DNA of 64,000 bases from an uncultured Eubacteriales bacterium. Its GTDB lineage: Bacteria > Bacillota > Clostridia > Oscillospirales > Oscillospiraceae. The stretch is from positions 111,109-175,108 of the forward strand of contig ONPF01000002.1 of assembly GCA_900319635.1 (NCBI GenBank), written 5' to 3'. Below, piece by piece: positions 44,078 to 56,080 of this stretch; the first letter of the stretch is position 1, and the number at the start of each line of letters is the position of its first letter. The notes beneath the pieces were generated by a model. That model was not told the origin of the DNA. It did no database searches and was given only the letters and a program-made list of their open reading frames with translations. Position numbers and translations under genes: made by a program.

Positions 44078-44153
44078 GTAGGGGCGGCTATCAGCCGCCC
44101 GCCGACATAGGCGTATGACCGACCAGCGGGCCGCCGAGGGCGTCGGCCCCTAC
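44078..44153. repeat. Family P palindromic element
   Basis: Ends GTAGGGGC (44078-44085) and GCCCCTAC (44146-44153) are inverted copies. The left inner hairpin is GGGCGGCTA-TC-AGCCGCCC. A middle part shared with other copies (GCCGAC ... CCGACCAGCGGGC) precedes the right inner hairpin. Confidence 0.75.
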
Positions 44154-44200
44154 GGAGCAGACCGGCGTTTCCCCTCGTGTCATTGCGAGGCCAGTTCGCT

Positions 44201-44308
44201 TTGCCTTCCCTGAAAGGGGAGGTGTCGCCGTCGCCTGCGCCGGTGACGGAGGGCATGCCTCCCCTGCAAGGGGAGGTGTCGCCGGCGCTTGCGCCGGTGA
44301 CAGAGGGG
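44201..44308. repeat. Family C repeat, two tandem copies
   Basis: Two units of about 54 bp (44201-44253 and 44255-44308). Each has CCTTCCCTGAAAGGGGAGG or CCTCCCCTGCAAGGGGAGG, then GTGTCGCCG, a short hairpin and CGGTGACGGAGGG or CGGTGACAGAGGG. Other copies: 50339-50393 and 53529-53596. Confidence 0.65.
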
Positions 44309-44342
44309 TTCTGTGCGCTCCGCGACCGCCCGTGCCTCCGCC

Positions 44343-44440
44343 TGTCATTGCGAACCGTAGGGCCGAGCATTGCTCGGCCGTCCCTCGTCCGCCGACCTGC
44401 CCCGATGTCCGACCAACGGGCGACCAAAGGTCGCCCCTAC
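44343..44440. repeat. Family T start joined to a family P element
   Basis: GTCATTGCGAACC (44344-44356) leads into a family P unit 44357-44440. Its left hairpin is GGCCGAGCA-TTG-CTCGGCC and its right hairpin GGGCGACCA-AAG-GTCGCCC, before CCTAC. Confidence 0.7.
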
Positions 44441-44462
44441 GGCGCAAACGGACAGTACACCC

Positions 44463-44536
44463 GTAGGGGCGATTCACGAATCGCCCGCCGACCTGCGCCC
44501 GTGTACGACCAACGGGCGGGTAATACCCGCCCCTAC
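44463..44536. repeat. Family P palindromic element
   Basis: Ends GTAGGGGC and GCCCCTAC. Left hairpin GGGCGATTC-AC-GAATCGCCC, right hairpin GGGCGGGTA-ATA-CCCGCCC. The middle part (GCCGACCTGCGCCCGTGT) matches other copies, while both stems differ from the copy 22 bp upstream. Confidence 0.75.
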
Positions 44537-44559
44537 GAAGCGGACGTTCTCCGCCCCTT

Positions 44560-44623
44560 ATTTCAATCCGTCGCGCTCTGCGCGACACCACAATTATTCA
44601 TTATTCATTTTTCATTATTCATT
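44560..44623. repeat. Family N element (half copy)
   Basis: TTTCAATCC, the hairpin GTCGCGC-TCT-GCGCGAC, then an A/T-rich array of TTATTCATTATTCAT words. Confidence 0.65.
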
Positions 44624-44633
44624 CACACCACCC

Positions 44634-44700
44634 GCGACAGCTGCGACAGCTGCGACGGCTTTTTCCCCGTCACAGGCCGTCACAGGCTGTCACAAGCCTG
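44634..44700. repeat. Family R repeat (GCGACAGCT words)
   Basis: Tandem GCGACAGCT words, then GCGACGGCTTTTTCCCCGTC and degenerate inverted words (CACAGGCCGT, CACAGGCTGT). Same orientation as the copy at 47164. Confidence 0.65.
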
Positions 44701-44706
44701 AAGCCT

Positions 44707-44735
44707 GCCCTCCTGTACCCGCGGGAGGGCCTTTT
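44707..44735 (+). terminator. Hairpin just before the VanZ gene
   Basis: GCCCTCC (44707-44713) pairs with GGAGGGC (44724-44730), followed by CTTTTG. It could end read-through from upstream. Confidence 0.35.
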
Positions 44736-44763
44736 GATCCAATCATGCAAAGGAGTACGCCAC

Positions 44764-45252
44764 ATGAAAGCCTTCCTGCGCAAAAATGCCCGCTGGCTCA
44801 CGCTGCTGCCCGTGATGGCGCTAATGACGGGGATCTTCTGCTTCTCCGCCCAGCCGGCGGAGCTGTCCCAGGAGACCAGCGGCGGCATCGTGAACTGGCT
44901 GCTGCGGCTGCTGGTGCCGGATTACGCCGCTCTCGACCCCGCACGTCAGGCAGAAATGGAGCATATCGCGGCCAAAATCGTGCGCAAAGGCGCCCATTTT
45001 GCGGAATACGCCCTGCTGGGCGCGGCGCTGCTGGGGCATGTGCTGGCCTGGCGGTCAAAGCGCGGCCTTGGGCGGCCCCGGGCGATGGCCTGGGGGCTGG
45101 GCACGGCCTACGCCGCCAGCGACGAGCTGCACCAGTTCTTTGTCCCCGGCCGGAGCGGAGAGTTCCTGGACGTGCTGCTGGACAGCGCGGGGGTGGCTGT
45201 GGGCGTCGCGCTGCTGTGGCTGCTCCTGCGGAAACGGAAGGGAAGCGCGTAG
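44764..45252 (+). CDS. VanZ-family membrane protein
   Basis: 162 residues. About four TM segments. Family features: FCFSAQPAELSQ near the start, AHFAEYALLGAAL, and SDELHQFFVPGRSGEFLDVLLD, the VanZ signature. VanZ confers low-level teicoplanin resistance in enterococci; chromosomal relatives have unclear roles. The ATG at 44764 has GGAG upstream. Repeat blocks isolate it on both sides. Confidence 0.88.
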   Translation: MKAFLRKNARWLTLLPVMALMTGIFCFSAQPAELSQETSGGIVNWLLRLLVPDYAALDPARQAEMEHIAAKIVRKGAHFAEYALLGAALLGHVLAWRSKRGLGRPRAMAWGLGTAYAASDELHQFFVPGRSGEFLDVLLDSAGVAVGVALLWLLLRKRKGSA

Positions 45253-45285
45253 GGGCGAGACCCGATCCATCCGCCGTCCCTCCGT

Positions 45286-45369
45286 GTCATTGCGAGCCGT
45301 AGGGCCGAGCATTGCTCGGCCGCCCCCTCGTCCGCCGACCACTGGTCGGCGCTACGGCGTGGCAATCCG
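45286..45369. repeat. Family T element enclosing a family P-like hairpin
   Basis: Outer frame GTCATTGCGAGCC ... GGCGTGGCAATCC. Inside, GTAGGGCCGAGCATTGCTCGGCC and CGCCGACCACTGGTCGGCG-CTAC form two stems closed by GTAG/CTAC. Confidence 0.7.
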
Positions 45370-45376
45370 CATCCCC

Positions 45377-45453
45377 GTAGGGGCGATTCACGAATCGCCC
45401 GCCGACTTGCGCCCGTGTCCGACAGGCGGGCCGTCGAGGGCGCCGGCCCCTAC
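45377..45453. repeat. Family P palindromic element
   Basis: 77 bp, GTAGGGGC ... GCCCCTAC. Left hairpin GGGCGATTC-AC-GAATCGCCC; the right part CGTCGAGGGCGCCGGCCCC is nearly self-complementary. Inverse-complement relative of the 47337 array units. Confidence 0.75.
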
Positions 45454-45477
45454 GATGCAGACGGACGTCCCCCCGCA

Positions 45478-45567
<90 letters not shown>

Positions 45568-45570
45568 TCC

Positions 45571-45622
45571 GTGACGGCTTGCGACGGGGGAAAAGCCGTC
45601 GCAGCTGTCGCAGCTGTCGCAG
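45571..45622. repeat. Family R repeat, inverted copy left of the ATPase gene
   Basis: GACGGCTTGCGACGGGGGAA, then GCCGTCGCAGCTGTCGCAG. It is the reverse complement of most of 47164-47225, so the ATPase gene lies between inverted copies. Confidence 0.7.
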
Positions 45623-45656
45623 ACCAAAGAAAATTCCGTTTAAGTGAAATCAGCTA

Positions 45657-45685
45657 TTGCAATATAACCGAACTTGTGGTATAAT
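45657..45685 (+). promoter_or_regulatory. SigA promoter for the RepA-like ATPase gene
   Basis: TTGCAA (45657-45662), 17-bp spacer, exact TATAAT (45680-45685). Confidence 0.8.
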
Positions 45686-45693
45686 ACAGCCGA

Positions 45694-45738
45694 ATTACCG
45701 GGAGTGCGTCTATTTTTATTCATGAGACGTTCGGTAAT
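45694..45738 (+). promoter_or_regulatory. 5'-UTR stem-loop of the ATPase gene
   Basis: ATTACCG (45694-45700) pairs with CGGTAAT (45732-45738), and CGTCT pairs with AGACG inside. It starts about 9 nt after the -10 box and ends before AAGGAGG, so it would form at the 5' end of the mRNA. Confidence 0.45.
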
Positions 45739-45761
45739 ACCATACTTCAAGGAGGTCGTCT

Positions 45762-47069
45762 ATGGAAGACGAAGTCGTAAACAAGTATCGGGAGCGCCTG
45801 CGGGGGAAGCTCTACAGCTATCTGGAGGCCGAGAGGCTGCTGGCCGAGGAGCAGCTGGCCTTCACCTGCGCCGGTTGCGGCGGCACGGCCCGCATCGCGG
45901 ACGAGGAGACCTGGTTCTGCCCGGAATGCGGCCGCAGCGGGGGACTTCTGGAGCTGGCGGCCCTGCGCTGGTCTGCCCGCAGCGAGTGGGATCGGATCCG
46001 GGCCCTCTGCCGCATCCTGCGCATCCCCGTCACGGAGCTGGAGACCTTCAGCAGCCGGGAGCTCCGGGACATGGCCCTGCAGCCCCGGGACTACCTGGTG
46101 GAGGGGCTGCTGCCCCGGGAGGGGCTCACGCTGCTGGCCGCCCCGGCCAAGACCGGCAAGAGCTGGCTGGTGCTGCAGCTGGCCTCCGCCCTGGTGCGAG
46201 AGCAGCCCTTCCTGGGCCGCCCCACCCACAAGACCCGGGTGCTCTATCTCTCTCTGGAGGATAATCCCCTCCGGCTCCGGGAGCGCAGCCGGGTGATGGA
46301 CTGCCTGGGCAGCCCCGATCTCTTCTTCTGCACCCGCTCGGAGCTGCTGGGCCGGGGCTTCGAGGAGGGGGTGGACAGCTTCCTCCGGCGGCAGCAGGGG
46401 ATCGGCCTGGTGATCGTGGACACCCTGCAGAAGATCCGGGAGGTGGGCCGGGAGTCCCCCAGCTACGGGGCGGACTACCGCACCATGGATCTGCTGAAGG
46501 AGCTCTCCGAGCGCTACAAGCTGGCGGTGCTGCTGGTGCATCACACCAATAAAAAAGAAGAAGCCGCCGACAGCATGAACATGGTCTCCGGCACCATGGG
46601 CATCATCGGCGGGGTGGACGGGATCTGGCTGCTGCGCCGTCCCAGCCGGCTGGAGGGCGCCGGGATGCTGCAGGTCACCGGCCGGGACACCGACGACATG
46701 CTGCTGCGGCTGAACTTTGAGAAAGAGAGCTGCCGCTGGCAGTACCTGGGCGAGGGCGAGGCGGAGCGTCTGACGCAGCCGGGGCTGGTGGAGTGCCTGG
46801 ACGGCTTTCTAGAGGAAGGGGAGGAGTGGATCGGCACCGCCACGGAGCTGCTGGAGCAGCTTGGTCTCTCGGAGCGGATGAGCTGCATCTCGCTCAGCAG
46901 CAGGCTAAAGGAGCTCAGCGGCAGCTTGGCCGCCCTGGGGATCGGCTGGGAGAAGCGAACGACCCGGCAGCGGCGGGACCTGCACCTGTGGCGCCGCGGG
47001 GCGGGGGAGATGCCCGCTCTGGGGGAGCTCCGGGAGGAGGACGCGGGGGAAAACCCCTTTCTTTCTTGA
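45762..47069 (+). CDS. RepA-like hexameric-helicase-family AAA ATPase with N-terminal zinc ribbon
   Basis: 435 residues. Zinc ribbon CAGCGG ... CPECG (Cys36, 39, 53, 56), as in primase-linked proteins. AAA_25/RecA-type ATPase: Walker A APAKTGKS at 127-134, LSLEDNPLRLRER, Walker B IGLVIVDTLQKI, LLVHHTNKK. The winged C-terminal part (about 330-435) may bind DNA. Such proteins belong to plasmids, phages and integrative elements as replication helicases. It stands alone in the chromosome with its own promoter, terminator and flanking inverted repeats. AAGGAGG precedes the ATG. Confidence 0.85.
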   Translation: MEDEVVNKYRERLRGKLYSYLEAERLLAEEQLAFTCAGCGGTARIADEETWFCPECGRSGGLLELAALRWSARSEWDRIRALCRILRIPVTELETFSSRELRDMALQPRDYLVEGLLPREGLTLLAAPAKTGKSWLVLQLASALVREQPFLGRPTHKTRVLYLSLEDNPLRLRERSRVMDCLGSPDLFFCTRSELLGRGFEEGVDSFLRRQQGIGLVIVDTLQKIREVGRESPSYGADYRTMDLLKELSERYKLAVLLVHHTNKKEEAADSMNMVSGTMGIIGGVDGIWLLRRPSRLEGAGMLQVTGRDTDDMLLRLNFEKESCRWQYLGEGEAERLTQPGLVECLDGFLEEGEEWIGTATELLEQLGLSERMSCISLSSRLKELSGSLAALGIGWEKRTTRQRRDLHLWRRGAGEMPALGELREEDAGENPFLS

Positions 47070-47105
47070 AAAGATAGTTTATTTTAAACTTACTATTTTT
47101 TCAAG
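47065..47105 (+). terminator. Terminator overlapping the end of the ATPase gene
   Basis: CTTGAAAA (47065-47072) pairs with TTTTCAAG (47098-47105), with ATAG/CTAT and AGTTT/AAACT pairs inside. The TGA stop lies in the left arm. The right arm is T-rich. Confidence 0.6.
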
Positions 47106-47163
47106 AGAGTGGGAAGATATACCCCCGCCCTCCGGACGCATACCCGGATAGGGTATCTCTTTT

Positions 47164-47225
47164 GCGACAGCTGCGACAGCTGCGACGGCTTTTCCCCCGT
47201 CGCAAGCTGTCGCAAGCCGTCGCAG
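47164..47225. repeat. Family R repeat right of the ATPase gene
   Basis: Three direct 9-bp words (GCGACAGCT, GCGACAGCT, GCGACGGCT at 47164-47190), a TTTCCCC centre, then inverted words GTCGCAAGCT, GTCGCAAGCC, GTCGCAG. Iteron-like spacing. Confidence 0.7.
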
Positions 47226-47239
47226 AGGGAGGGAACAGA

Positions 47240-47305
47240 GAATAATGAATAGTGAATAATGAATAATTGAGGTGTCGCGCAGAGCGCGACGGATTGAAAT
47301 TCATA
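47240..47305. repeat. Family N element
   Basis: GAATAATGAATAGTGAATAA words, then the hairpin GTCGCGC-AGA-GCGCGAC and GGATTGAAAT. Opposite orientation to the copies at 44560 and 48953. Confidence 0.65.
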
Positions 47306-47336
47306 GTGCGTAATACGGGGAACGTGCGCCCATTTC

Positions 47337-47611
47337 GTAGGGGCTGGCGCCCTCGACAGCCCGCTTGTCGGACACGGGCGCATGTCGGCGGGCGATTCGT
47401 GAATCGCCCCTACAGGGGGACGTTCGTCTGCTTCGTAGGGGCTGGCGCCCTCGACAGCCCGTTGGTCGGACACGGGCGCAGGTCTGCGGGCGATTCGTGA
47501 ATCGCCCCTACAGGGGGACGTTCGTCTGCTTCGTAGGGGCTGGCGCCCTCGACAGCCCGCTTGTCGGACACGCGCGCAGGTCTGCGGAGCGATCAGGGGA
47601 TCGCTCCCTAC
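47337..47611. repeat. Three tandem 98-bp units of family P
   Basis: Units start at 47337, 47435 and 47533, exactly 98 bp apart. Each is a family P element (47337-47413, 47435-47511, 47533-47611) plus a shared 21-bp link ending CGTCTGCTTC. Units 1 and 2 carry the stem GGGCGATTC-GT-GAATCGCCC. Unit 3 has GGAGCGATC-AGGG-GATCGCTCC in the same place, both arms changed together. Confidence 0.85.
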
Positions 47612-47634
47612 GGGGAAACGCCGGTCTGCGCCTC

Positions 47635-47659
47635 AATTCCGAATTCCGAATTCCGAATT
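47635..47659. repeat. ATTCCGA heptamer tract
   Basis: Three and a half copies of AATTCCG directly after the 98-bp array. Confidence 0.6.
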
Positions 47660-47716
47660 TTTCTCGTCGCCCCTACGGATTCACTTTTCTCTCTTTCCTT
47701 TTCCCCGCAACTATGC

Positions 47717-47722
47717 TAAAAT
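47717..47722 (+). promoter_or_regulatory. Extended -10 element before ruvC
   Basis: TGCTAAAAT (47714-47722) fits an extended -10 box 18 bp before the ruvC ATG; the -35 region is poor. Confidence 0.4.
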
Positions 47723-47740
47723 ACTCCCGGAGTTGATTCT

Positions 47741-48253
47741 ATGCGGATTCTGGGCATCGATCCGGGCGTGGCCACCATCGGCTTCGGCGTGCTGGACGCG
47801 GATCGCAATCGCCACGCGCTGCTCAAATGCGGCGTCATCACCACCCCGGCCCACACCAGCCTGTCCAGCCGGCTGGAGCAGATCTTCCGCGACATGCAGG
47901 ATCTTCTGACGATCTTCAAGCCCGAGGCCGTCAGCGTGGAGGAGCTGTTTTTCAATACCAATATCACCACCGGCATCGCCGTGGCCCACGCCAGAGGGGT
48001 GATCCTGCTGGCCTGCCGCCTGGCGGGGGTGCCGATCTACGAGTACACCCCGCTGCAGGTGAAGCAGTCCGTGGTGGGCTACGGCCGGGCGGAGAAGCGG
48101 CAGGTCATGGACATGGTCAAGCGCCTCTGCAATCTCCCGGCGCCCCCCAAGCCCGACGACGCCGCCGACGCGGTGGCGCTGGCGCTCTGCCACGCCCGCA
48201 GCGCTACCAGTCTCTTGAATCGAGGAGGAAACGAGCCATGTTCTACCACATAG
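47741..48253 (+). CDS. ruvC: Holliday-junction resolvase RuvC
   Basis: 170 residues. RILGIDPGVATIGFG holds the first catalytic Asp (Asp7); VSVEELFFNTN the Glu; KPDDAADAVALAL the C-terminal Asp pair. Cuts Holliday junctions in the RuvABC complex. Overlaps ruvA by 16 nt. Confidence 0.96.
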   Translation: MRILGIDPGVATIGFGVLDADRNRHALLKCGVITTPAHTSLSSRLEQIFRDMQDLLTIFKPEAVSVEELFFNTNITTGIAVAHARGVILLACRLAGVPIYEYTPLQVKQSVVGYGRAEKRQVMDMVKRLCNLPAPPKPDDAADAVALALCHARSATSLLNRGGNEPCSTT

Positions 48254-48846
48254 AGGGCACGGTCGCGGAGCTGGCGCCAAATCTGGCGGTGCTGGACTGC
48301 GGCGGCCTGGGCTTCGCTCTGAACGTCACCACCAACACCCTGAGCCGCCTGAAAAGCGGCGAGCGCGCCAAGCTCTTCGTCTCCGAGAGCATCGGGGAGA
48401 CGAATTTTGACCTCTTCGGCTTCTGCGACAAGAGCGAGAAGCGCTGCTTCGAGATGCTGATCGGCGTCTCCGGCATCGGGCCCAAGGCCGCCCTCTCGAT
48501 TTTGAGCTACAACAGCCCCGAGAGCCTGGCCCTGGCGGTGCTGAACGACGACACCAAGGCGCTGACCGTGGCGCCGGGCATCGGCAAGAAGATCGCCCAG
48601 CGGGTGATCCTGGAGCTGAAGGACAAGATCGGCAAGGAGCTGGGGGAGCAGAGCTTTTCTCTGCCCGCGGCCGCCGCGCCCTCCGCCCCGGCGGGGGAGA
48701 ACCGGGCGCTCTCCGACGCGCTGGCGGGTCTGGCCGTGCTGGGCTACTCCAGCCAGGAGCTGAGCCCGGTGCTCAAGCGCATGGATCTCACCGGTCTCGA
48801 CGCCCAGGGTATCATCAAGCAGGTGCTGAAGGAGTTCGTGCGATAA
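48238..48846 (+). CDS. ruvA: Holliday-junction branch-migration protein RuvA
   Basis: 202 residues. MFYHIEGTVAEL start, OB domain, two helix-hairpin-helix motifs (GVSGIGPKAA and VAPGIGKKIAQRV), flexible Ala/Pro linker, and domain III that contacts RuvB. AGGAGG lies before the ATG, inside ruvC. Confidence 0.96.
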   Translation: MFYHIEGTVAELAPNLAVLDCGGLGFALNVTTNTLSRLKSGERAKLFVSESIGETNFDLFGFCDKSEKRCFEMLIGVSGIGPKAALSILSYNSPESLALAVLNDDTKALTVAPGIGKKIAQRVILELKDKIGKELGEQSFSLPAAAAPSAPAGENRALSDALAGLAVLGYSSQELSPVLKRMDLTGLDAQGIIKQVLKEFVR

Positions 48847-49033
48847 GTTTTGAGTTTTCAGTTTTGAGTTTTGAGGAGACGAGAGAGGTCGCACAGAGGA
48901 CGGAACTGTGTTTCTCGCGGGGGACATACAGACCCGTCCCCGGTGCTCCCCTGAATCCGTCGCGCTTTGCGCGACACCTCAATTATTCATTATTCATTAT
49001 TCACTATTCACTAAAATCCCGGAGGGATTTTCT
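48847..49033. repeat. Repeat-filled gap between ruvA and ruvB
   Basis: Contains GTTTTGAGTTTTCAGTTTTG words (48847-48876; a similar patch follows gpmI at 940-975), two hairpins (CACAG/CTGTG at 48892-48910, GGGGAC/GTCCCC at 48920-48941), and a family N half copy at 48953-49013. Confidence 0.6.
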
Positions 49034-50071
49034 ATGAGTATCAACTTTTCCGAAGACACCGGGGAGGTGCTGACCACTACGGTGAGCCTGCCGGAGGATC
49101 ACGCCGAGGGCTCGCTCCGCCCCCGGACGCTGCAGGAGTATATCGGCCAGGAGAAGGCCAAGGGCAACCTGGAGGTCTTCATCGGCGCGGCCAAAATGCG
49201 GGGCGAGCCCCTGGATCACGTGCTGCTCCACGGCCCCCCGGGCCTGGGCAAGACCACCCTGGCCGCCGTCATCGCAAACGAGCTGGGCGTCAATATGCGC
49301 ATCACCTCCGGCCCCGCCATCGAGAAGCCCGGCGACCTGGTGGCCATGCTCACCAATCTCAGCGAGGGGGACATCCTCTTCGTGGACGAGATCCACCGCC
49401 TCAACCGGGCCTATGAGGAGATCCTGTACCCCGCCATGGAGGATTTCGCCATCGACATCATCCTGGGCAAGGGCCCCTCGGCCAACTCCATCCACCTGGA
49501 TCTGCCCCGCTTCACGCTCATCGGCGCCACCACCCGCTCCGGCCAGCTCACCGCGCCCCTGCGGGATCGCTTCGGCGTGACGCTGCGGCTGGAGCTCTAC
49601 ACCCCCCAGGAGCTGCAGCGGATCGTCCGCCGCTCCGCCGGGATTCTGAACGTGGAGATCGAGCCCGCGGGCGCCTACGAGATCGCCTCCCGCTCCCGGG
49701 GCACCCCCCGCATCGCAAACCGGATGCTCCGCCGGGTGCGGGACTTCGCCCAGGTGCAGGGGGACGGGGTCATCACCCGTGAGATCGCCGACCGGGCGCT
49801 GAGCCGCCTGGAGGTGGACAAGCTGGGCCTGGACGGGCTGGATCGCCGGATGCTCCGCAGCATCATCGAGCTATACGGCGGCGGCCCCGTTGGGCTGGAG
49901 ACCCTGGCCGCCACCATCAACGAGGAGGCCGTGACCCTGGAGGATATGTACGAGCCCTACCTGCTGCAGCAGGGCTTTTTGACGAGGACGCCCCGGGGCC
50001 GCTGCGTCACCCGCAAGGCCTACGAGCACCTGGGTATCGCCTACATGGGCCAGCAGGAGCTGCCGCTGTAG
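49034..50071 (+). CDS. ruvB: Holliday-junction branch-migration helicase RuvB
   Basis: 345 residues. Walker A GPPGLGKT, Walker [27 protein letters not shown] sensor region, and a C-terminal winged helix. The ATG at 49034 has GGAGGG upstream. Unlike many genomes, ruvA and ruvB are separated by a 187-bp repeat-filled gap, so coupling between them is broken. Confidence 0.97.
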
Positions 50072-50117
50072 GAGAATTCGGAATTCGGAATTAAGGCGCA
50101 GACCGGCGTTTTCCCCT

Positions 50118-50202
50118 TGTCATTGCGAACCGTAGGGCCGAGCATTGCTCGGCCGTGCCTCACCCGCTGCCCACTGGTCGACGCTGCGCTTTGCCAACCC
50201 GC
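50118..50202. repeat. Family T element with degenerate right end
   Basis: GTCATTGCGAACC, hairpin GGCCGAGCA-TTG-CTCGGCC, CCACTGGTCGACG, then TTTGCCAACCC in place of GTGGCAATCC. Confidence 0.6.
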
Positions 50203-50208
50203 ATCCCC

Positions 50209-50285
50209 GTAGGGGCGATTCGTGAATCGCCCGCCGACATGGGTGCGTGTCCGACAAACGGGACGTCGAGGGCGCCGTCCCCTAC
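50209..50285. repeat. Family P palindromic element
   Basis: 77 bp from GTAGGGGC to CCCCTAC; left hairpin GGGCGATTC-GT-GAATCGCCC. A second right half with GGGCGGCTG-AT-AGCCGCCC follows at 50301-50324. Confidence 0.7.
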
Positions 50286-50338
50286 GCAGGAGACGGACAG
50301 GCGGGCGGCTGATAGCCGCCCCTACGCAGCGGACGGCC

Positions 50339-50393
50339 TTGCCTCCCCTGAAAGGGGAGGTGTCAGTGGCGCTTGCGCCGGTGACGGAGGGGT
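50339..50393. repeat. Family C repeat
   Basis: CCTCCCCTGAAAGGGGAGG, GTGTCAGT, hairpin GGCGC-TT-GCGCC, GGTGACGGAGGGG. Confidence 0.6.
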
Positions 50394-50476
50394 TGTCATT
50401 GCGAACCGTAGGGCCGAGCATTGCTCGGCCGTCCCTCGCCCGCCGCCCGCCGGTCGGCGCTGCGGTGTGGCAACCT
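50394..50476. repeat. Family T element
   Basis: GTCATTGCGAACC ... GGTGTGGCAACC enclosing GGCCGAGCA-TTG-CTCGGCC and CGCCGCCCGCCGGTCGGCG. Confidence 0.65.
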
Positions 50477-50542
50477 GCATCATTTTCCCGTGTTTCTGAA
50501 CAAAGTGTTCTAACAATTCGCCCTATTTTTTCGAAAAATCTA

Positions 50543-50570
50543 TTGACTTTGCCCGATCTTTCGATATAAT
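50543..50570 (+). promoter_or_regulatory. SigA promoter for the SigH-like gene
   Basis: TTGACT (50543-50548), 16-bp spacer, exact TATAAT (50565-50570). Confidence 0.8.
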
Positions 50571-50602
50571 ATCCTATGTATGGTGTTTGAGATGATCGGG
50601 TA

Positions 50603-51223
50603 ATGATGCGTGATTTGATGGATTTGCAGGATATTGAACTGCAGCGGATGGCCGCCTCGGGCGACCGCGCTGCGGAGGAGCTTCTGGCCGGGCGCTATAT
50701 GCAGCTGGTGCGCGTCTGTGCCCGCCCGCTGTTTTTGGCGGGAGGGGACAGCGAGGATCTGAGCCAGGAGGGCATGTTCGGCCTGCTCTCCGCTATCCGG
50801 GAATTTGACCCCGCCCAGGGCGTCAGCTTCCGCAGCTTTGCGGAGCATTGCATCCGGATGCGCCTGTACTCCGCCGTCAAGTCCGCCGCCCGTCTCAAGC
50901 ATCTCCCCCTGAACGACAGTATGCCCCTTGAGCAACTCTCCGACGATCCCAGTTCGCAGTTATCGGCCGCTCCCGAAATATTTCGCCGCAGCCCGGAGGA
51001 TTTGGTTCTGGCCAGAGAGAGCAAGGAAGAGCTGATTGAGCTTTGCAAGCGGCGCCTGTCCCGTCTGGAACTGCAGGTTTTGGATTGCTATCTGGAGGGC
51101 TTGTCCTACCGGGACATCGCCCAGCGCCTGCAGAAAGACGAAAAATCCGTGGACAACGCCGTCCAGCGGATCCGGCGCAAGCTGGCGCAGACCCTTCACC
51201 CCGGCGATATCAGCGTGAGCTGA
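50603..51223 (+). CDS. SigH-like sigma-70-family factor
   Basis: 206 residues. Region 2 with DLSQEGMFGLLSAIREFDP and FRSFAEHCIRMRLYSAVKSA, then region 4 with LEGLSYRDIAQRLQKDEKSVDNAVQRIRRKL. Size and sequence resemble sporulation factor SigH, which acts early in sporulation; other small sigma-70 factors are possible. The start is uncertain because the ribosome site is weak. Confidence 0.82.
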   Translation: MMRDLMDLQDIELQRMAASGDRAAEELLAGRYMQLVRVCARPLFLAGGDSEDLSQEGMFGLLSAIREFDPAQGVSFRSFAEHCIRMRLYSAVKSAARLKHLPLNDSMPLEQLSDDPSSQLSAAPEIFRRSPEDLVLARESKEELIELCKRRLSRLELQVLDCYLEGLSYRDIAQRLQKDEKSVDNAVQRIRRKLAQTLHPGDISVS

Positions 51224-51273
51224 TCGCAAATACAGCCGATAACCGGCAACTTATCAAAAGAGAGGATTCCAAC

Positions 51274-51552
51274 ATGTACGAAGACAAGACCTTAGTATGC
51301 AAAGAGTGCGGTAAAGAGTTCGTTTTCACCGCCGGTGAGCAGGAGTTCTACGCGGAGCGCGGCTTCCAGAACGAGCCCCAGCGCTGCAAGCCCTGCCGTG
51401 ACGCCCGCAAGAACGCGGCCCGCGGTCCCCGGGAGTTCTTCACTGCCACCTGCGCTGCCTGCGGCCGCGAGGCGAAGGTTCCTTTCGAGCCCAAGTCCGA
51501 CCGTCCCGTCTACTGCAGCGAGTGCTTCGCTAAGATGAGAGAGCAGGCCTGA
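51274..51552 (+). CDS. Small double zinc-ribbon protein
   Basis: 92 residues with four CxxC pairs: CKEC (Cys9/12), CKPC, CAAC, CSEC. EFVFTAGEQEFYAERGF and PVYCSECFAKMR are typical of a small CxxC zinc-ribbon family common in Firmicutes. The role is unknown, perhaps nucleic-acid binding. AGAGG precedes the ATG; a good terminator follows. Confidence 0.85.
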   Translation: MYEDKTLVCKECGKEFVFTAGEQEFYAERGFQNEPQRCKPCRDARKNAARGPREFFTATCAACGREAKVPFEPKSDRPVYCSECFAKMREQA

Positions 51553-51562
51553 TCCGCCTGAC

Positions 51563-51600
51563 AAAGAAAAAGGGACGCCTCGTGCGTCCTTTTTTCTTTT
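51563..51600 (+). terminator. Terminator after the zinc-ribbon gene
   Basis: AAGAAAAAGGGACGC (51564-51578) pairs with GCGTCCTTTTTTCTTTT (51584-51600), a long stem with a T-rich arm. Confidence 0.85.
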
Positions 51601-51621
51601 GCTGAACGCAAAAGAAAATGA

Positions 51622-51774
51622 TGGAATGAAGCTCGGCTCCGCCTCATGAAGGAATGAAGTCGCCCTTCGGGCTAATTGTTGTGGCACGCGTAGCGTGACG
51701 GAATAAAATCCGTGCCGCGCAGCGGCACACCATAATTTCTTCATTTCTTCGTTTCTTCATTGCTTCATTCCTTC
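51622..51774. repeat. Family N-like composite element
   Basis: Terminal GGAATGAAG (51622) and CTTCATTCC (51774) are inverted copies. Inside are GTGGCACGCGTAGCGTGAC and GTGCCGCGCAGCGGCAC, separated by GGAATAAAATCC, the layout of the 39853 element. Confidence 0.65.
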
Positions 51775-51805
51775 AGCCATATCACTTTACAAGGAGGTCA
51801 CCTTT

Positions 51806-52006
51806 ATGGAAATCACCCGCGAGACTGTCATCGGCGAGATCGTCGCCAACTGCCCGGAGGCCATGCCCGCCTTTATGGACATCGGCATGCACTGCATCGG
51901 CTGCGCCATGGCCAGCGGCGAGACCGTGGAGCAGGCCTGCGCCGCCCACGGCGTGGACCCGGACGAGTTTCTGGAGTATCTGAAGAAGTTCCTTGAGACG
52001 CTCTGA
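51806..52006 (+). CDS. DUF1858-domain protein
   Basis: 66 residues. ITRETVIGEIVANCPEAMPAF and GMHCIGCAMASGETVEQAC are the DUF1858 core, with a CxxC-like Cys pair; the domain is often beside hybrid-cluster or redox proteins. AAGGAGG lies before the ATG. Confidence 0.88.
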   Translation: MEITRETVIGEIVANCPEAMPAFMDIGMHCIGCAMASGETVEQACAAHGVDPDEFLEYLKKFLETL

Positions 52007-52063
52007 GCGCCTCTCTTGCCTCCCCCTCCGGGGGAGGTGGCCGAAGGCCGGAAGGGGGTAAGC

Positions 52064-52759
52064 ATGAACAAACGTCTGCAAGCCATCGAGGCGCTGGTGC
52101 GCCCCGGCCGCGGCCTCATCGACGTGGGCACGGATCACGGCTATCTGCCCGTGTCCCTGGCCCGGCACGGCTACCCCGGCGCGCTCTTCGCTTCGGACCT
52201 GCGGGAGGGGCCGCTGAACGCCGCCCGCCGCAGCGCCCGGGAGGCCGGCCTTGACGAGCGCATCACCTTCCAGCTCTGTGACGGGCTGGAGCTCTGCGAC
52301 CCGGACGCGGTGGACACCATCGTCGTCGCCGGCATGGGGGGTGACACCGTCTGCGGCATCCTGGATCGGGCGGACTGGTGCCTGGATCCTCGCTACCGGC
52401 TGATCCTCCAGCCCATGACAAGGGCCGAGGTGCTGCGCTACTGGCTCACGAACAACGGCTTTGTCATTGAGGAGGAGCGCCTGGTGGAGGACGCGGGGGA
52501 GATCTACGCCCTTTTTACCGCCCGCTTCGGCGGGGAGACGCGCCTCAGCGACGCGGAGCTCTACACCGGCGCCTTTGCGCTGGTGGAAGGGGAGAGGCTC
52601 TGGCCGGAATTTCTGCGCCTGCAGCGCAAGCGGATGGAGAAGCTCCTCGCCGGCCTGCGGCAGAGCGGCCGGGAGCCGGGACGCCTGAACTTGATGGAGG
52701 CGATCCTCCGCGATTTGAAAGAGAGGGAAGACCATGCCCAGCATTCAGGAGATCTATGA
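52064..52759 (+). CDS. trmK: tRNA (adenine-22-N1)-methyltransferase TrmK
   Basis: 231 residues. SAM site IDVGTDHGYLPVSLA, then VVAGMGGDTVCGIL, the TrmK catalytic region, and a C-terminal coiled coil. Methylates A22 of some tRNAs. The ATG at 52064 follows GGAAGGGGG. The leader contains a palindrome CCCCCTCCGGGGG resembling family C. Overlaps nif3 by 26 nt, the usual Firmicute pair. Confidence 0.93.
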   Translation: MNKRLQAIEALVRPGRGLIDVGTDHGYLPVSLARHGYPGALFASDLREGPLNAARRSAREAGLDERITFQLCDGLELCDPDAVDTIVVAGMGGDTVCGILDRADWCLDPRYRLILQPMTRAEVLRYWLTNNGFVIEEERLVEDAGEIYALFTARFGGETRLSDAELYTGAFALVEGERLWPEFLRLQRKRMEKLLAGLRQSGREPGRLNLMEAILRDLKEREDHAQHSGDL

Positions 52760-53498
52760 GAAACTCTGCCTCTGGGCGCCGCCGGAAACCCAGATGGACT
52801 TTGACAATTCCGGCTTCCTGCTGGGCCACGGGGAGAGAGCCGTCACCCGCGTCCTGCTGTCCCTGGACATCACCGTGCCGGTGATCGAGGAGGCGGCGGC
52901 CTGGGGCGCGGAGCTCATCGTGTCCCACCACCCGCTCATCTTCCACCCCCTCCGCTCGCTGCATGAGACGGGGGAGGGCGGCCGCGCCCTGCGCCTTGCG
53001 GAAAAGGGCATCGCGGCCATCTGTATGCACACGAACCTGGACATCGCCCGGGGCGGCGTCAACGACGTGCTGATCCGCCTGCTGGGCGCCGAGCCCGAGG
53101 CCGCGCTGGATTCCGAGGGCTGCGGCCGGGTGGGCACGCTGCCGGAGGCCCTGCCCCTTTGCGACTTCCTTGCCCGCTGCAAGGAGCGCCTGGGGGCGGA
53201 GGGGCTGCGCTATGTTAACGGCGGCAGACCGGTGCGCCGCCTTGCGGTGATGGGCGGCTCCGGCGGCTCTGCCCTGGGCTGTGCCGTTTCCAAGGGCTGC
53301 GACAGCTATGTGACCGCCGACGTGAAGCACGACGTGTTTCTGGAGGCGGCGGAGCTGGGGGTGAACCTCATCGACGCCGGGCATTTCTGCACGGAGAATC
53401 CCGTGATCCCCGCCCTCTGCGCCCGCCTGCGGGAGGCTTTTCCTGATGTGGACTTTCGCGTCTCTCAGCGCCACACCCAGACCCCGCACTTCTTTTGA
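52734..53498 (+). CDS. Nif3-like dinuclear metal-centre protein
   Basis: 254 residues, the short form without the inserted domain. Metal ligands in SHHPLIFHP, HTNLD and DAGHFCTEN. It forms a hexameric ring; biochemical role uncertain, perhaps linked to GTP cyclohydrolase-like chemistry or metal handling. Confidence 0.92.
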   Translation: MPSIQEIYEKLCLWAPPETQMDFDNSGFLLGHGERAVTRVLLSLDITVPVIEEAAAWGAELIVSHHPLIFHPLRSLHETGEGGRALRLAEKGIAAICMHTNLDIARGGVNDVLIRLLGAEPEAALDSEGCGRVGTLPEALPLCDFLARCKERLGAEGLRYVNGGRPVRRLAVMGGSGGSALGCAVSKGCDSYVTADVKHDVFLEAAELGVNLIDAGHFCTENPVIPALCARLREAFPDVDFRVSQRHTQTPHFF

Positions 53499-53507
53499 CG
53501 CGCCCCT

Positions 53508-53625
53508 GCCATTGCGAACCAGTGCGCTTTGCCTCCCCTGAAAGGGGTCTTGGGTGTGTCGCCCGGCATCTCCCGCAAGCCGGGTGACGGAGGGGTTTCC
53601 CCGTAGGGGCGGCTATCAGCCGCCC
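53508..53625. repeat. Families T, C and P fragments before spoIVA
   Basis: CATTGCGAACCAGTGCGC (start of family T), family C at 53529-53596 with a longer stem GCCCGGC ... GCCGGGT, and a left half of family P at 53602-53625 (GTAGGGGCGGCTATCAGCCG). Confidence 0.6.
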
Positions 53626-53685
53626 GCAGATTTCCCGTCACCTAACTACTGCGCACTACGCGCTTAGCACTCGTTCCCCCGGCTT

Positions 53686-53715
53686 GTTCTATCACGCCTT
53701 CGCGTCTCATACACT
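53686..53715 (+). promoter_or_regulatory. Possible SigE promoter for spoIVA
   Basis: CATACACT (53708-53715) matches the SigE -10 consensus. GTTCTATC, 14 bp upstream (53686-53693), is a weak -35. It lies 38 bp before the ATG. Confidence 0.45.
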
Positions 53716-53752
53716 CGTAGCAGCGAGAATGTGAGAGCGGAGGCGTTTTTAT

Positions 53753-55231
53753 ATGAGTGAAAGCAAAATCTACGAGCAGCTGTCCCAGCGCACCGGCGGC
53801 GCCTGCATGCTGGGCGTGGTGGGGCCGGTGCGCACCGGAAAGTCCAGCTTTATCCAGCGCTTTATGGAGAAGCTGGTGATCCCCCGGATCGAGAACAGCT
53901 ACATGCGGCAGCGCGCCTGGGATGAGCTGCCGCAGAGCGGCTCCGGCCGCAGCATCATGACCGCCGAGCCCAAATTTGTGCCGGAGGAGCCGGTGAGTAT
54001 CGCCCTGGGGGAGAACAGCGCCCTCTCCGTCCGGCTGGTGGACTGCGTGGGCTACATGGTGGAGGGCGCTGCCGGTCAGATGGAGGACGGTAAGGAGCGC
54101 ATGGTGACCACCCCCTGGTTCGACCACGAGGTGACCATGTCCCAGGCGGCGGAGCAGGGGACGGCGCTGGTGATCCGCCAGCACGCCGATATCGGCATCG
54201 TGGTCACCTGCGACGGCAGCATCTGCGAGCTTCCCCGGGAGGCCTATCGGGAGCCGGAGGGACGGGTGATCCGGGAGCTGCAGGAGATCGGCAAGCCCTT
54301 CGTGGTGATCCTGAACAGCAGCGACCCGGAAGGGGAGGAGGCGCAGCGGGCAGCGGAGGAGATCCGGCAGGAATACGGCGTGGGCTGCCTGCCGGTGAAC
54401 TGTCTGAGCCTGGAGGAGGCGCAGATCGTGGAGCTGCTGCGCCTTGCGCTGGAGGCTTTTCCCCTCCGTTCCCTGGGCTTCTACTTGCCGCCCTGGGTCA
54501 ACGCTCTGCCTGACGGCGAAGGCCCCCGCGCCGCCATCTTCGAAGCCGTGCGCGCGGCAGGGGAGGGGATCGAGACCCTCGGCCAGCTCTCCCAGGTGCT
54601 GGAGCGGCTGCGGGAGGGCGAGCTCTTTTCCGCCGTGGAGATCGCGTCGGAGGATCTGGGCCGCGGCGCCGCGCTCATACGCCTGGAGCTGCCCCGGGCG
54701 ATGTACTACGAGCAGCTCTCCCGGCTCAGCGGCCTGGAGATCGGGGACGACCGGGCGCTTCTGACGGCGCTTCAGGAGCTCAGCCAGGCCGGCCACGCCT
54801 ATGCAAGGGTTCGCGAGGCGCTGGAGGACGTTGAGAAAACCGGCTACGGCGTGGTGCTGCCCGATGCGGATCAGATGCGCCTGGAGCAGCCCCAGATCGT
54901 GCAGCAGGGCGGCAAATACAGCGTGAAGCTCCGCGCCGGCGCCCCGGTCATTCACATGCTGCGCACGGAGGTGGACTGCGAGGTGAACCCCGCCATCGGC
55001 GGCGACAGTGCCAGCGACGACATCCTGGGCTTTCTGCTCCAGGGCTTTGACGGGGACGTGAACCGGATCTGGGAATCCAAGATCTTCGGCCGCTCCCTCA
55101 ACGAGCTGGCGGAGGAGAGCCTGCACACCCGTATCGCCTCCCTGCCGGAGAACGCCAAGCTCCGCCTGCGGGAGACCCTGCAGCGCCTCGTCAACGAGGA
55201 CAGCAGCGGCCTCATCTGCATCCTTCTTTAA
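53753..55231 (+). CDS. spoIVA: Stage IV sporulation protein A (coat ATPase)
   Basis: 492 residues, normal. N-terminal ATPase with Walker A GPVRTGKSS at 24-32, VDCVGYMVEGA and HADIGIVVTCDGS; then a long middle domain and the C-terminal tail SSGLICILL, needed in Bacillus for anchoring to SpoVM. It hydrolyses ATP to polymerise into the basement layer of the coat. GCGGAGGCG lies upstream of the ATG. Confidence 0.97.
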   Translation: MSESKIYEQLSQRTGGACMLGVVGPVRTGKSSFIQRFMEKLVIPRIENSYMRQRAWDELPQSGSGRSIMTAEPKFVPEEPVSIALGENSALSVRLVDCVGYMVEGAAGQMEDGKERMVTTPWFDHEVTMSQAAEQGTALVIRQHADIGIVVTCDGSICELPREAYREPEGRVIRELQEIGKPFVVILNSSDPEGEEAQRAAEEIRQEYGVGCLPVNCLSLEEAQIVELLRLALEAFPLRSLGFYLPPWVNALPDGEGPRAAIFEAVRAAGEGIETLGQLSQVLERLREGELFSAVEIASEDLGRGAALIRLELPRAMYYEQLSRLSGLEIGDDRALLTALQELSQAGHAYARVREALEDVEKTGYGVVLPDADQMRLEQPQIVQQGGKYSVKLRAGAPVIHMLRTEVDCEVNPAIGGDSASDDILGFLLQGFDGDVNRIWESKIFGRSLNELAEESLHTRIASLPENAKLRLRETLQRLVNEDSSGLICILL

Positions 55232-55265
55232 ATCTCCTTTGACTTGGAGAGGGGGAGAAGCTATA

Positions 55266-55994
55266 ATGGAGACAAAACAGCGGAAAAAGACGGATCCCTT
55301 TCGGCGCCAGCGCATCACCGCGACCCTCTGCGCCCTGGCGGTGCTGCTGGGCTCGCTCTGGATCGCCTCGCTGCTTCAGCCGGAGACGGCGGAGACCTTT
55401 GCCCCGGCCTCGCCCATCCGCCTGGTGCTGGATCCGGGGCACGGCGGGGTGGACGGCGGCGCCATCGCCTACAACGGCGTGAAGGAGAGCGATTTGAACC
55501 TGGCCATCGCCCTGCGCCTGCGGGATCTGGCCGCCTTCTACGGGCTGGAGACCTCCATGACCCGGGAGGATGACCGCACCCTCAGCGACGACGAGCACTA
55601 CAGCGAGCATGAGGATCTGGTGAGCCGGGCGGCGTTTCTCAACGCCGAAGGCGGCCTCTGTCTCAGCATCCACCAGAACACCTTTCCCACCTCGCAGCCC
55701 CGGGGCGCCCAGGTGCTCTACGGGGCAGGGGAGGAGAGCCGCCGCCTGGGCCAGCGGATCCAGAACTGCATCGTATCCCATCTGCAGCCGGAGAACCGAA
55801 GGGTGGCGGAGCCCGCCTCCTCCGGCCTCTATCTGCCCAGCCATGTGGAGCATCCCTTCGCGCTGGTGGAGTGCGGCTTTCTGTCCAATCTCTCGGAGCT
55901 GCAGGAGCTCAGCAGCGAGCGGTATCAGAAATCCTTCGCGGCGGTGCTGCTATGCGCCTGCCTGCAATACGCGCATGATTCAGAGATCGGATAA
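55266..55994 (+). CDS. cwlD: N-acetylmuramoyl-L-alanine amidase CwlD
   Basis: 242 residues. N-terminal TM or signal segment about 20-40, then an Amidase_3 domain: LVLDPGHGGVDGGA, KESDLNLAIALRL, SIHQN, VECGFLSN (zinc His, Glu, His and catalytic Glu). CwlD helps make muramic-lactam in the spore cortex. The location after spoIVA fits. The ATG at 55266 follows GGGGAGAAG. Confidence 0.9.
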   Translation: METKQRKKTDPFRRQRITATLCALAVLLGSLWIASLLQPETAETFAPASPIRLVLDPGHGGVDGGAIAYNGVKESDLNLAIALRLRDLAAFYGLETSMTREDDRTLSDDEHYSEHEDLVSRAAFLNAEGGLCLSIHQNTFPTSQPRGAQVLYGAGEESRRLGQRIQNCIVSHLQPENRRVAEPASSGLYLPSHVEHPFALVECGFLSNLSELQELSSERYQKSFAAVLLCACLQYAHDSEIG

Positions 55995-55998
55995 ACCC

Positions 55999-56080
55999 GT
56001 AGGGAGCGATCCCCAGATCGCTCCGCTTGCTTCTCCAGACGAAGCGGTGTACGCGGAGGCATCCCCGGATACCTCCCTGC
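55999..56080. repeat. Family P element with alternate stems
   Basis: Left GTAGGGAGCGATC-CCCA-GATCGCTCC, right GGAGGCATCC-CCG-GATACCTCCCT, ending CTGC where others have CTAC. Stem bases differ from other copies on both arms. Confidence 0.65.

What the first reader, a model, noticed from the sequence alone, without database searches (positions are those of the whole stretch)
44078..56080. Family P: palindromic elements whose stems change sequence but stay complementary
At least nine copies share ends GTAGGG(G/A)C ... GCCCCTAC and a common middle (GCCGAC ... GTCCGAC). The inner stems differ: GGGCGATTC/GAATCGCCC, GGGCGGCTA/AGCCGCCC, GGCCGAGCA/CTCGGCC, GGAGCGATC/GATCGCTCC, GGGCGACCA/GTCGCCC, GGGCGGGTA/CCCGCCC. 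Every stem stays paired, so both arms change together. That is strong evidence for selection on, or a copying mechanism acting on, a hairpin. No protein is encoded. It could be a non-autonomous mobile element handled by a hairpin-specific enzyme (REP/TnpA-like), or a structured RNA with exchangeable stems.
Basis: partly seen in the sequence, partly recalled or inferred. Interest (0 to 1): 0.85.

Follow-up and report, generated by a model that had tools for sequence, protein, structure and literature searches.

The report
Mosaic REP hairpin pairs with exchangeable stems
The hairpin repeats are small mobile DNA pairs of a known kind (REPINs), but in this bacterium the two hairpins of a pair often belong to different transposase families, and most of those transposase genes carry matching hairpins inside their own coding sequence.

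Summary
In detail: window 44078-56024 has 23 GTAG-footed hairpins, 18 of them in nine head-head dimers; the genome has 100 such dimer places against 5 for the reversed control. The genome encodes seven RAYT (REP transposase) genes. In 41 same-genus genomes, 18 of 22 with a RAYT have two or more dimers, against 1 of 19 without. One window array is absent from the syntenic site in five of five relatives. Stem type follows RAYT lineage. Two features go beyond what I found in print: the window family is a mosaic, a constant 27-nt spacer with hairpins of two different families in 21 of 22 spacer-selected dimers; and 41 of 54 sampled Bacillota RAYT genes carry an in-frame head-head hairpin pair around the HUH codons, its stems changing together. 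REPs inside RAYT genes between HuH and Y are already known (PMC6006769). A new variant of a known kind; the exchange mechanism is inferred.

The parts
44078..44153 (+). head-head REP dimer, stems GGGCGGCT (left) / GGGCCGAC (right), P spacer 20/27
44357..44440 (+). head-head REP dimer, stems GGCCGAGC / GGGCGACC, P-like spacer with an 11-nt insert
44463..44536 (+). head-head REP dimer, stems GGGCGATT / GGGCGGGT, P spacer 23/27
45299..45355 (+). head-head pair GTAGGGCCGAGC / GTAGCGCCGACC with an 11-nt gap, inside a TGTCATTGCGA...GGCAATCC repeat
45377..45453 (+). head-head REP dimer, stems GGGCGATT / GGGCCGGC, P spacer 25/27
47337..47413 (-). tandem unit 1: stems GGGCGATT / GGGCTGGC, P spacer (used as the reference)
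47435..47511 (-). tandem unit 2 (98-nt period): stems GGGCGATT / GGGCTGGC
47533..47611 (-). tandem unit 3: preceding 20 nt and one hairpin identical to unit 2, but the other hairpin is GGAGCGAT instead of GGGCGATT
50132..50154 (+). single GTAG hairpin GGCCGAGC
50209..50285 (+). head-head REP dimer, stems GGGCGATT / GGGACGGC, P spacer 23/27
50303..50325 (-). single GTAG hairpin GGGCGGCT
50408..50430 (+). single GTAG hairpin GGCCGAGC
53603..53625 (+). single GTAG hairpin GGGCGGCT
55999..56024 (+). single GTAG hairpin GGAGCGAT
45249..45256 (+). GTAGGGGC end without a hairpin passing the scan (probably a decayed copy); similar lone ends at 45504-45511 and 47669-47676 on the minus strand

Best explanation
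Family P is a set of GTAG-type REP dimers (REPINs): two GTAG-footed hairpins, feet outward, around a spacer. They are non-autonomous substrates of RAYTs, single-strand HUH/Y1 transposases that recognise GTAG plus the hairpin. The stems differ because several REP families coexist in this genome, each matching its own RAYT lineage; this genome still encodes some of these RAYTs. P dimers are mosaics: a constant spacer whose two hairpins were replaced as whole units, so both arms of a stem change at once. In this RAYT clade the gene itself usually carries a head-head hairpin pair in frame around the HUH codons, the two stems matching each other and changing together between lineages. Shown: anatomy, copy number, RAYT genes, RAYT-dimer association, empty site, stem-lineage match, mosaicism, in-gene pairs. 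Inferred: RAYT cleavage of these hairpins, that RAYT rather than ordinary recombination exchanges hairpins, and the function of the in-gene pair (most likely a built-in copy of the enzyme's own binding site, used for self-recognition or autoregulation).
For: 100 dimer places against 5 for the control pattern. Seven RAYT genes in the genome; NCBIfam REP_Tyr_transpos cut-off reached by two of four tested. Predicted fold (pLDDT 88) best matches 4er8, a RAYT bound to a REP hairpin (by sequence). Same-genus association 18 of 22 against 1 of 19, Fisher 7e-7; order level, a RAYT in 9 of 11 genomes with 14 or more dimers. Array 50132-50430 absent at the syntenic site in five of five relatives. RAYT tree with hairpin-encoded residues masked: left-stem changes 40 against a shuffled minimum of 63, right-stem 55 against 75 (200 shuffles); stems identical in all 19 pairs at 70% or more protein identity. 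The window's stem types, some only as a close variant, occur in or beside RAYT genes of this genome or genus, except GGGCGGGT. In-gene hairpins: 162 in 114 coding sequences against 4.15 (maximum 8 of 20 runs) in synonymous shuffles; the two in-gene stems identical over 10 nt in 39 of 58 genes, mean identity 0.95 against 0.54 between genes. Mosaic: 21 of 22 spacer-selected dimers heterotypic; 23 of 27 P-spacer against 5 of 28 other dimers, Fisher 6e-7.
Against: RAYT and dimers do not always go together. G446 has 21 dimers and no RAYT at E 1e-20 (80% complete); G007 and G029 are dimer-rich without one. Four same-genus RAYT genomes have 0-1 dimers, and in the order G025, G040, G043, G046, G142 and G144 have a RAYT confirmed by the HMM but 0-2 dimers. 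In this 92%-complete genome no RAYT was found for GGGCGATT, GGGCGGCT, GGACGAGC, GGAGCGAT or GGGCGGGT stems; the first four have one in relatives. The genus statistics do not correct for phylogeny. The RAYT query alignment came mainly from hairpin-bearing genes (11 of 12), so the fraction of RAYTs with in-gene hairpins is biased upward. No cleavage, transposition or transcript was measured, and no target duplication or exact junction was resolved.
Confidence: 0.86

Rival explanations
1. Structured RNA: the stems are kept paired because the transcript needs the hairpins (terminator, mRNA stabiliser or riboregulator), and stem sequence is free to drift.
For: The window copies lie between the evident ORFs; PMC3733652 proposes RNA roles for GTAG REPs elsewhere (abstract).
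Against: No Rfam match. Stems fall into discrete types that follow RAYT lineages. 259 of 267 stem cells are Watson-Crick, only 3 G-T (that set was chosen to have at most one unpaired cell per hairpin). One array is absent at the syntenic site of five relatives.
Confidence: 0.06
2. Stems stay paired through hairpin-templated repair (quasipalindrome correction, recalled) that copies one arm onto the other, with no enzyme specific to the element.
For: Perfect stems dominate; such correction could keep existing hairpins perfect.
Against: It does not explain the GTAG foot, the match of stem type to RAYT lineage, the agreement between two hairpins about 170 nt apart in one gene, or the RAYT-dimer association.
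Confidence: 0.05
3. The mosaic dimers arose by ordinary homologous or microhomology recombination within the shared spacer and the shared GTAGGG/CCCTAC ends, not by RAYT-catalysed hairpin exchange; the elements themselves are still REPINs. This rivals only the exchange step.
For: The spacer is conserved enough to recombine (46 places against 7 control); the left and right slots keep their own preferred families, as half-exchange in the spacer would give.
Against: Other dimers with the same ends are mostly homotypic (23 of 28). Neither this nor RAYT catalysis was tested.
Confidence: 0.45

Closest known systems
GTAG REPs and REPINs (Di Nocera 2013, PMC3733652: abstract, section 4 part 1, section 16 and passages read; Bertels and Rainey 2011, PMC3116915: search listing only)
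   Same: GTAG foot directly before a short GC-rich stem, mostly intergenic, head-head dimers commonest, tandem groups, several families in one genome, complementary stem alternatives.
   Different: Found here in a Bacillota-type genome (inferred from the nearest RAYT loci); section 4 names Proteobacteria, Cyanobacteria, Chloroflexi and PVC as GTAG hosts and the main text does not hold Firmicutes or Clostridi. The P dimers mix hairpins of different RAYT-matched families around a constant spacer.
Subclass 2.4 TnpAREP genes with REPs inserted in frame (Quentin 2018, PMC6006769: section 12 and passages read)
   Same: REP hairpins inside the RAYT gene, in frame, after the HuH motif, in a peripheral variable region; stem bottom of three G-C pairs; 'double foot' REPs.
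   Different: That paper places the insert 'generally' between HuH and Y. Here a hairpin also lies before HUH in 45 of 54 Bacillota loci against 1 of 26 others (my tally by the record titles), and the two form a head-head pair with matching stems.
E. coli TnpAREP and BIMEs (4er8; PMC8266576: section 29 and passages read)
   Same: Best structural match of the predicted RAYT; the E. coli REPtron also pairs different REP subtypes (PMC6006769 section 12).
   Different: E. coli has a single REPtron with related Y/Z REP subtypes (PMC6006769); here the mixed stems match separate RAYT lineages.

Membership tests
GTAG REP / REPIN | GTAG tetranucleotide at the foot of a palindromic stem | tested here: met
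   124 of 238 GTAGGG sites followed by a hairpin against 0-2.8% for 17 other anchors
GTAG REP / REPIN | High copy number, head-head dimers predominating | tested here: met
   100 dimer places genome-wide; neighbours within 60 nt FR 34, RF 14, FF 4, RR 5 in 464 kb
GTAG REP / REPIN | RAYT gene in the genome | tested here: met
   Seven genes, one split between frames; NCBIfam NF047646 cut-off reached by two of four tested
GTAG REP / REPIN | Each REP family associated with its own RAYT (REPtron) | tested here: met
   Stem type follows the RAYT tree; stems in or beside the gene; not seen for GGGCGGGT
GTAG REP / REPIN | Cut and rejoined by the RAYT | not testable with these tools
   needs biochemistry
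Subclass 2.4 RAYT | REP inserted in frame within the gene between HuH and Y | tested here: met
   right-site hairpin after HUH in 60 of 80 named loci (42 pairs plus 18 right-only)
Subclass 2.4 RAYT | assignment by the authors' own profile | not tested
   profile not at hand
IS200/IS605 insertion sequence | TnpA of IS200 type | tested here: not met
   NCBIfam transpos_IS200: 21.8-31.4 bits in three proteins, no match in the fourth, cut-off 55
Known Rfam RNA family | score at or above gathering threshold | tested here: not met
   0 matches over the window

The most novel reading that the evidence does not exclude
Hairpins behave as exchangeable address cassettes: RAYT lineages each hold a working copy of their own substrate inside their coding frame, and RAYT activity swaps whole hairpins between RAYT genes and dispersed REPINs, so that old REPIN scaffolds (the P spacer) survive turnover of RAYTs by taking up the hairpin of whichever RAYT is active.
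Probability: 0.25. Interest if true: 0.82.

Novelty: new variant of a known kind. Interest (0 to 1): 0.6.

Why it matters
How REPs spread and how RAYTs change specificity is open. Here one genus holds several RAYT lineages, most with their substrate-type hairpin written into the gene in two places and scattered through the genome. That makes enzyme-substrate co-evolution readable from sequence and testable by swapping stems in vitro. The mosaic dimers make it possible to ask whether RAYTs exchange hairpins rather than whole dimers.

Tried and rejected
Rejected: a new RNA family; an IS200/IS605 MITE; chance hairpins from base composition.

Led nowhere: a first covariation script had the anchor one base off and gave no signal; it was repeated correctly. 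The paper search for GTAGGGGC found 440 papers, of which I saw the 20 listed, none on this subject; GDPCGRP gave 0 papers; two searches gave nothing useful. Bertels 2017 on RAYT groups is not held and was seen only as cited in PMC6006769. One search (299 genomes of the phylum) gave 93 with a match, many of them weak; I used only its hits in the window's own genome and part of its loci in the tree.

Rows dropped or missed: the script recognised no RAYT ORF in 7 of the 22 loci scanned (L069, L070, L073, L082, L085, L086, L087); of the 15 it recognised, 13 had the in-gene pair. L069 and L073 were picked up by the HMM. In one search, three of the 50 places listed were left out by oversight; fetched later they are two homotypic and one heterotypic, all with non-P spacers. 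The other 50 of the 100 places are not listed; those in the window and in the sampled stretches are counted, the rest are not. One search looked at 30 of the 46 spacer places; 8 of the 30 lacked one or both hairpins under my scan. L281, counted as heterotypic there, has two closely similar stems (GGGAGGGG/GGGAGGGC), so the strict figure is 20 of 22. My hairpin-family letters are regular-expression bins of my own.
Full report
What is there. The window part 44078-56024 holds 23 hairpins that start directly after GTAG. Eighteen form nine head-head dimers, GTAG-hairpin-spacer-hairpin-CTAC; five are single. By my reading of the ORF list all lie between the evident genes (VanZ-like 44764-45252, a helicase-like ORF 45762-47069, ruvC 47741-48253, ruvA 48238-48846, ruvB 49034-50071 and others; names by inspection and recall, from no call). 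Three units at 47317-47612 are tandem copies with a 98-nt period. Units 2 and 3 share the preceding 20 nt, the first hairpin and 24 of 27 spacer positions, but the second hairpin is GGGCGATTCGTGAATCGCCC in one and GGAGCGATCAGGGGATCGCTCC in the other: a whole-hairpin difference between neighbours.

More than chance. The genome (2.16 Mb, 52 contigs, 92% complete) has 100 places of the dimer pattern against 5 for the reversed control. In 464 kb of it (window included), 124 of 238 GTAGGG sites are followed by a perfect hairpin, against 0-2.8% at 17 other anchors. With selection on GTAGGG and CCG only, inner positions are paired above every arm-permuted control at 15, 17 and 18 nt, not at 14, 16 or 19.

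Mobility. Stretches of 10-11 kb around ruvCAB from five same-genus relatives hold no GTAG hairpin under my scan, although G478 and G482 have 30 and 78 dimers elsewhere. The array 50132-50430 has both flanks aligned in all five and is missing in all five (the 471-nt stretch 50062-50533 corresponds to 85 nt in G478). For the arrays at 44078-44536 and 45299-47611, both flanks align only in G478, where they are missing too; in the other four the left flank is not, or only partly, alignable. The arrays are therefore insertions in the window's lineage, or were lost in the relatives.

The enzyme. The genome has seven genes related to RAYT (REP-associated tyrosine transposase), one of them split between two frames. 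Two of four tested reach the NCBIfam cut-off for REP_Tyr_transpos; none reaches that for IS200. The predicted fold of one (pLDDT 88) is closest to 4er8, a RAYT bound to a REP hairpin. Among 41 same-genus genomes, 18 of 22 with a RAYT have two or more dimers, against 1 of 19 without (Fisher 7e-7; not corrected for phylogeny; the exception is G446 with 21). In 147 genomes of the order, 11 have 14 or more dimers, and 9 of the 11 have a RAYT; G007 and G029 do not. The converse is weaker: six further genomes have a RAYT confirmed by the HMM but 0-2 dimers (G025, G040, G043, G046, G142, G144).

Hairpins inside the transposase genes. Both first-found RAYT genes contain GTAGGGGCGACC...GGTCGCCCG before the HUH codons and the inverted hairpin after them, in frame. 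Of 80 named relatives, 42 have this pair, 22 one half, 16 none. By record titles (my tally), the pair is in 41 of 54 Bacillota and 1 of 26 others (an unplaced 'bacterium'); of the other 25, 13 have only the right-hand site and 12 neither. In 114 distinct coding sequences there are 162 in-gene GTAG hairpins in 88 genes, against 4.15 on average (maximum 8 of 20 runs) after synonymous shuffling; nine control tags gave 1-7. In the L016 protein the hairpins encode residues 39-47 and 93-101, two loops of the model. The right-hand hairpin occurs in two reading frames (58 and 20), the left almost always in one (59 of 62). In 58 genes with both, the two stems are identical over 10 nt in 39 and 95% alike on average, against 54% between genes (permuted maximum 61%). 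So four arms change together. The sample was gathered with an alignment in which 11 of 12 rows bear the pair, so its frequency is biased upward; the shuffle test is not.

Why the stems differ. On a tree of 138 RAYTs with hairpin-encoded residues masked, stem type changes less often than in any of 200 shuffles (40 against at least 63 for the left site, 55 against at least 75 for the right). All 19 pairs at 70% or more protein identity share the stems; below 60% at most 6% do. Many forks of the tree are weak. Within the genus the lineages are GGGCGACC, GGGCCGAC, GGGCCGGC, GGGCGCTT/GGGCGATT and GGGCGGCT (stem inside the gene), and a lineage with stems beside the gene (GTAGCGCCGAGC in this genome, GGACGAGC/GGACGGCC in G478, GGAGCGAT in G457). 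These cover the window's stems, some only through a close variant (GGCCGAGC, GGGCTGGC), except GGGCGGGT. Only some of these RAYTs were found in this genome; the others sit in relatives, so some families look orphaned here.

The window family is a mosaic. Searching the genome with the spacer alone, blind to stems, gave 46 places against 7 for the reversed control. Of the 30 best, 22 have both hairpins and 21 of these are of two different families (20 if two near-identical stems are counted as one). The left slot holds mainly GGGCGATT (10 of 30) and GGAGCGAT (8), the right mainly the GGGNCGGC/GGGCTGGC type (13) and GGGCGGGT (5). In a set of 55 distinct dimers, 23 of 27 with the P spacer are mixed, against 5 of 28 with other spacers (Fisher 6e-7).

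Mechanism. Shown: REP dimers, mobile over the divergence of a genus, associated with RAYTs, stem type following RAYT lineage, whole-hairpin differences around a constant spacer. From established knowledge of RAYTs (PMC6006769, PMC8266576; sections and passages read): these enzymes act on single-stranded DNA, contact GTAG and the hairpin, and can cut and rejoin REPs. Inferred: that these RAYTs do so here; that exchange is done by RAYT rather than by recombination in the spacer (open, near even); that the in-gene pair serves self-recognition or autoregulation.

What is known. GTAG REPs, their dimers, multiple families and complementary stem variants are described (PMC3733652; abstract, section 4 part 1, section 16 and passages read). 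REPs in frame inside RAYT genes, generally between HuH and Y, are described for subclass 2.4, whose REPs also have three G-C pairs at the stem bottom (PMC6006769 section 12). Not found in print or in the sections and passages read: the second in-gene hairpin before HUH, the agreement of the two in-gene stems, and mosaic dimers whose two hairpins match separate RAYT lineages. The library holds open-access papers only, and I saw no supplementary files.

Noticed in passing
window 44343-44384, 45285-45326, 50118-50159, 50394-50435: A second intergenic repeat, TGTCATTGCGA..., has a GTAG hairpin (GGCCGAGC) at the same inner position in all four copies found, as if the REP was carried by the larger repeat.
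   Followed up: partly
window 44197-44310, 50335-50394, 53526-53562: Repeat CCTCCCCTGAAAGGGGAGGTGTCGCC...GCGCCGGTGACGGAGG, a further palindromic intergenic family without GTAG.
   Followed up: no
window 44565-44621, 48954-49010, 51707-51763; also C23, C24, C32, C42 of the genome: Repeat AATCCGTCGCGC...GCGCGACACC followed by ATTATTCATTATTCA runs; further copies elsewhere in the genome.
   Followed up: no
window 44634-44694 and 47164-47224: GCGACAGCTGCGACAGCTGCGACGGCTTTTTCCCC repeat, 87% identical over 61 nt.
   Followed up: no
window 45762-47069: The helicase-like gene is absent between the VanZ-like gene and ruvC in G478 (328 nt there against about 2,470), so it may be an insertion together with its flanking arrays, or lost there.
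   Followed up: partly
L201 and L202 (G000 C24): Two RAYT genes have two and three tandem copies of the second in-gene hairpin; in L201 the frame stays open, in L202 the coding sequence is split between two overlapping frames.
   Followed up: partly
L273, L281 (G000 C6, C14): A hairpin with an unusually long loop that itself holds a short inverted repeat (CCCTTTAGGG): possible nested insertion in a REP loop.
   Followed up: no
G446: 21 dimers, many of one homogeneous type with a shared spacer, but no RAYT found at E 1e-20 (80% complete genome).
   Followed up: no
G035: Its seven pattern matches are copies of one unrelated 91-nt stretch, not REP dimers.
   Followed up: no
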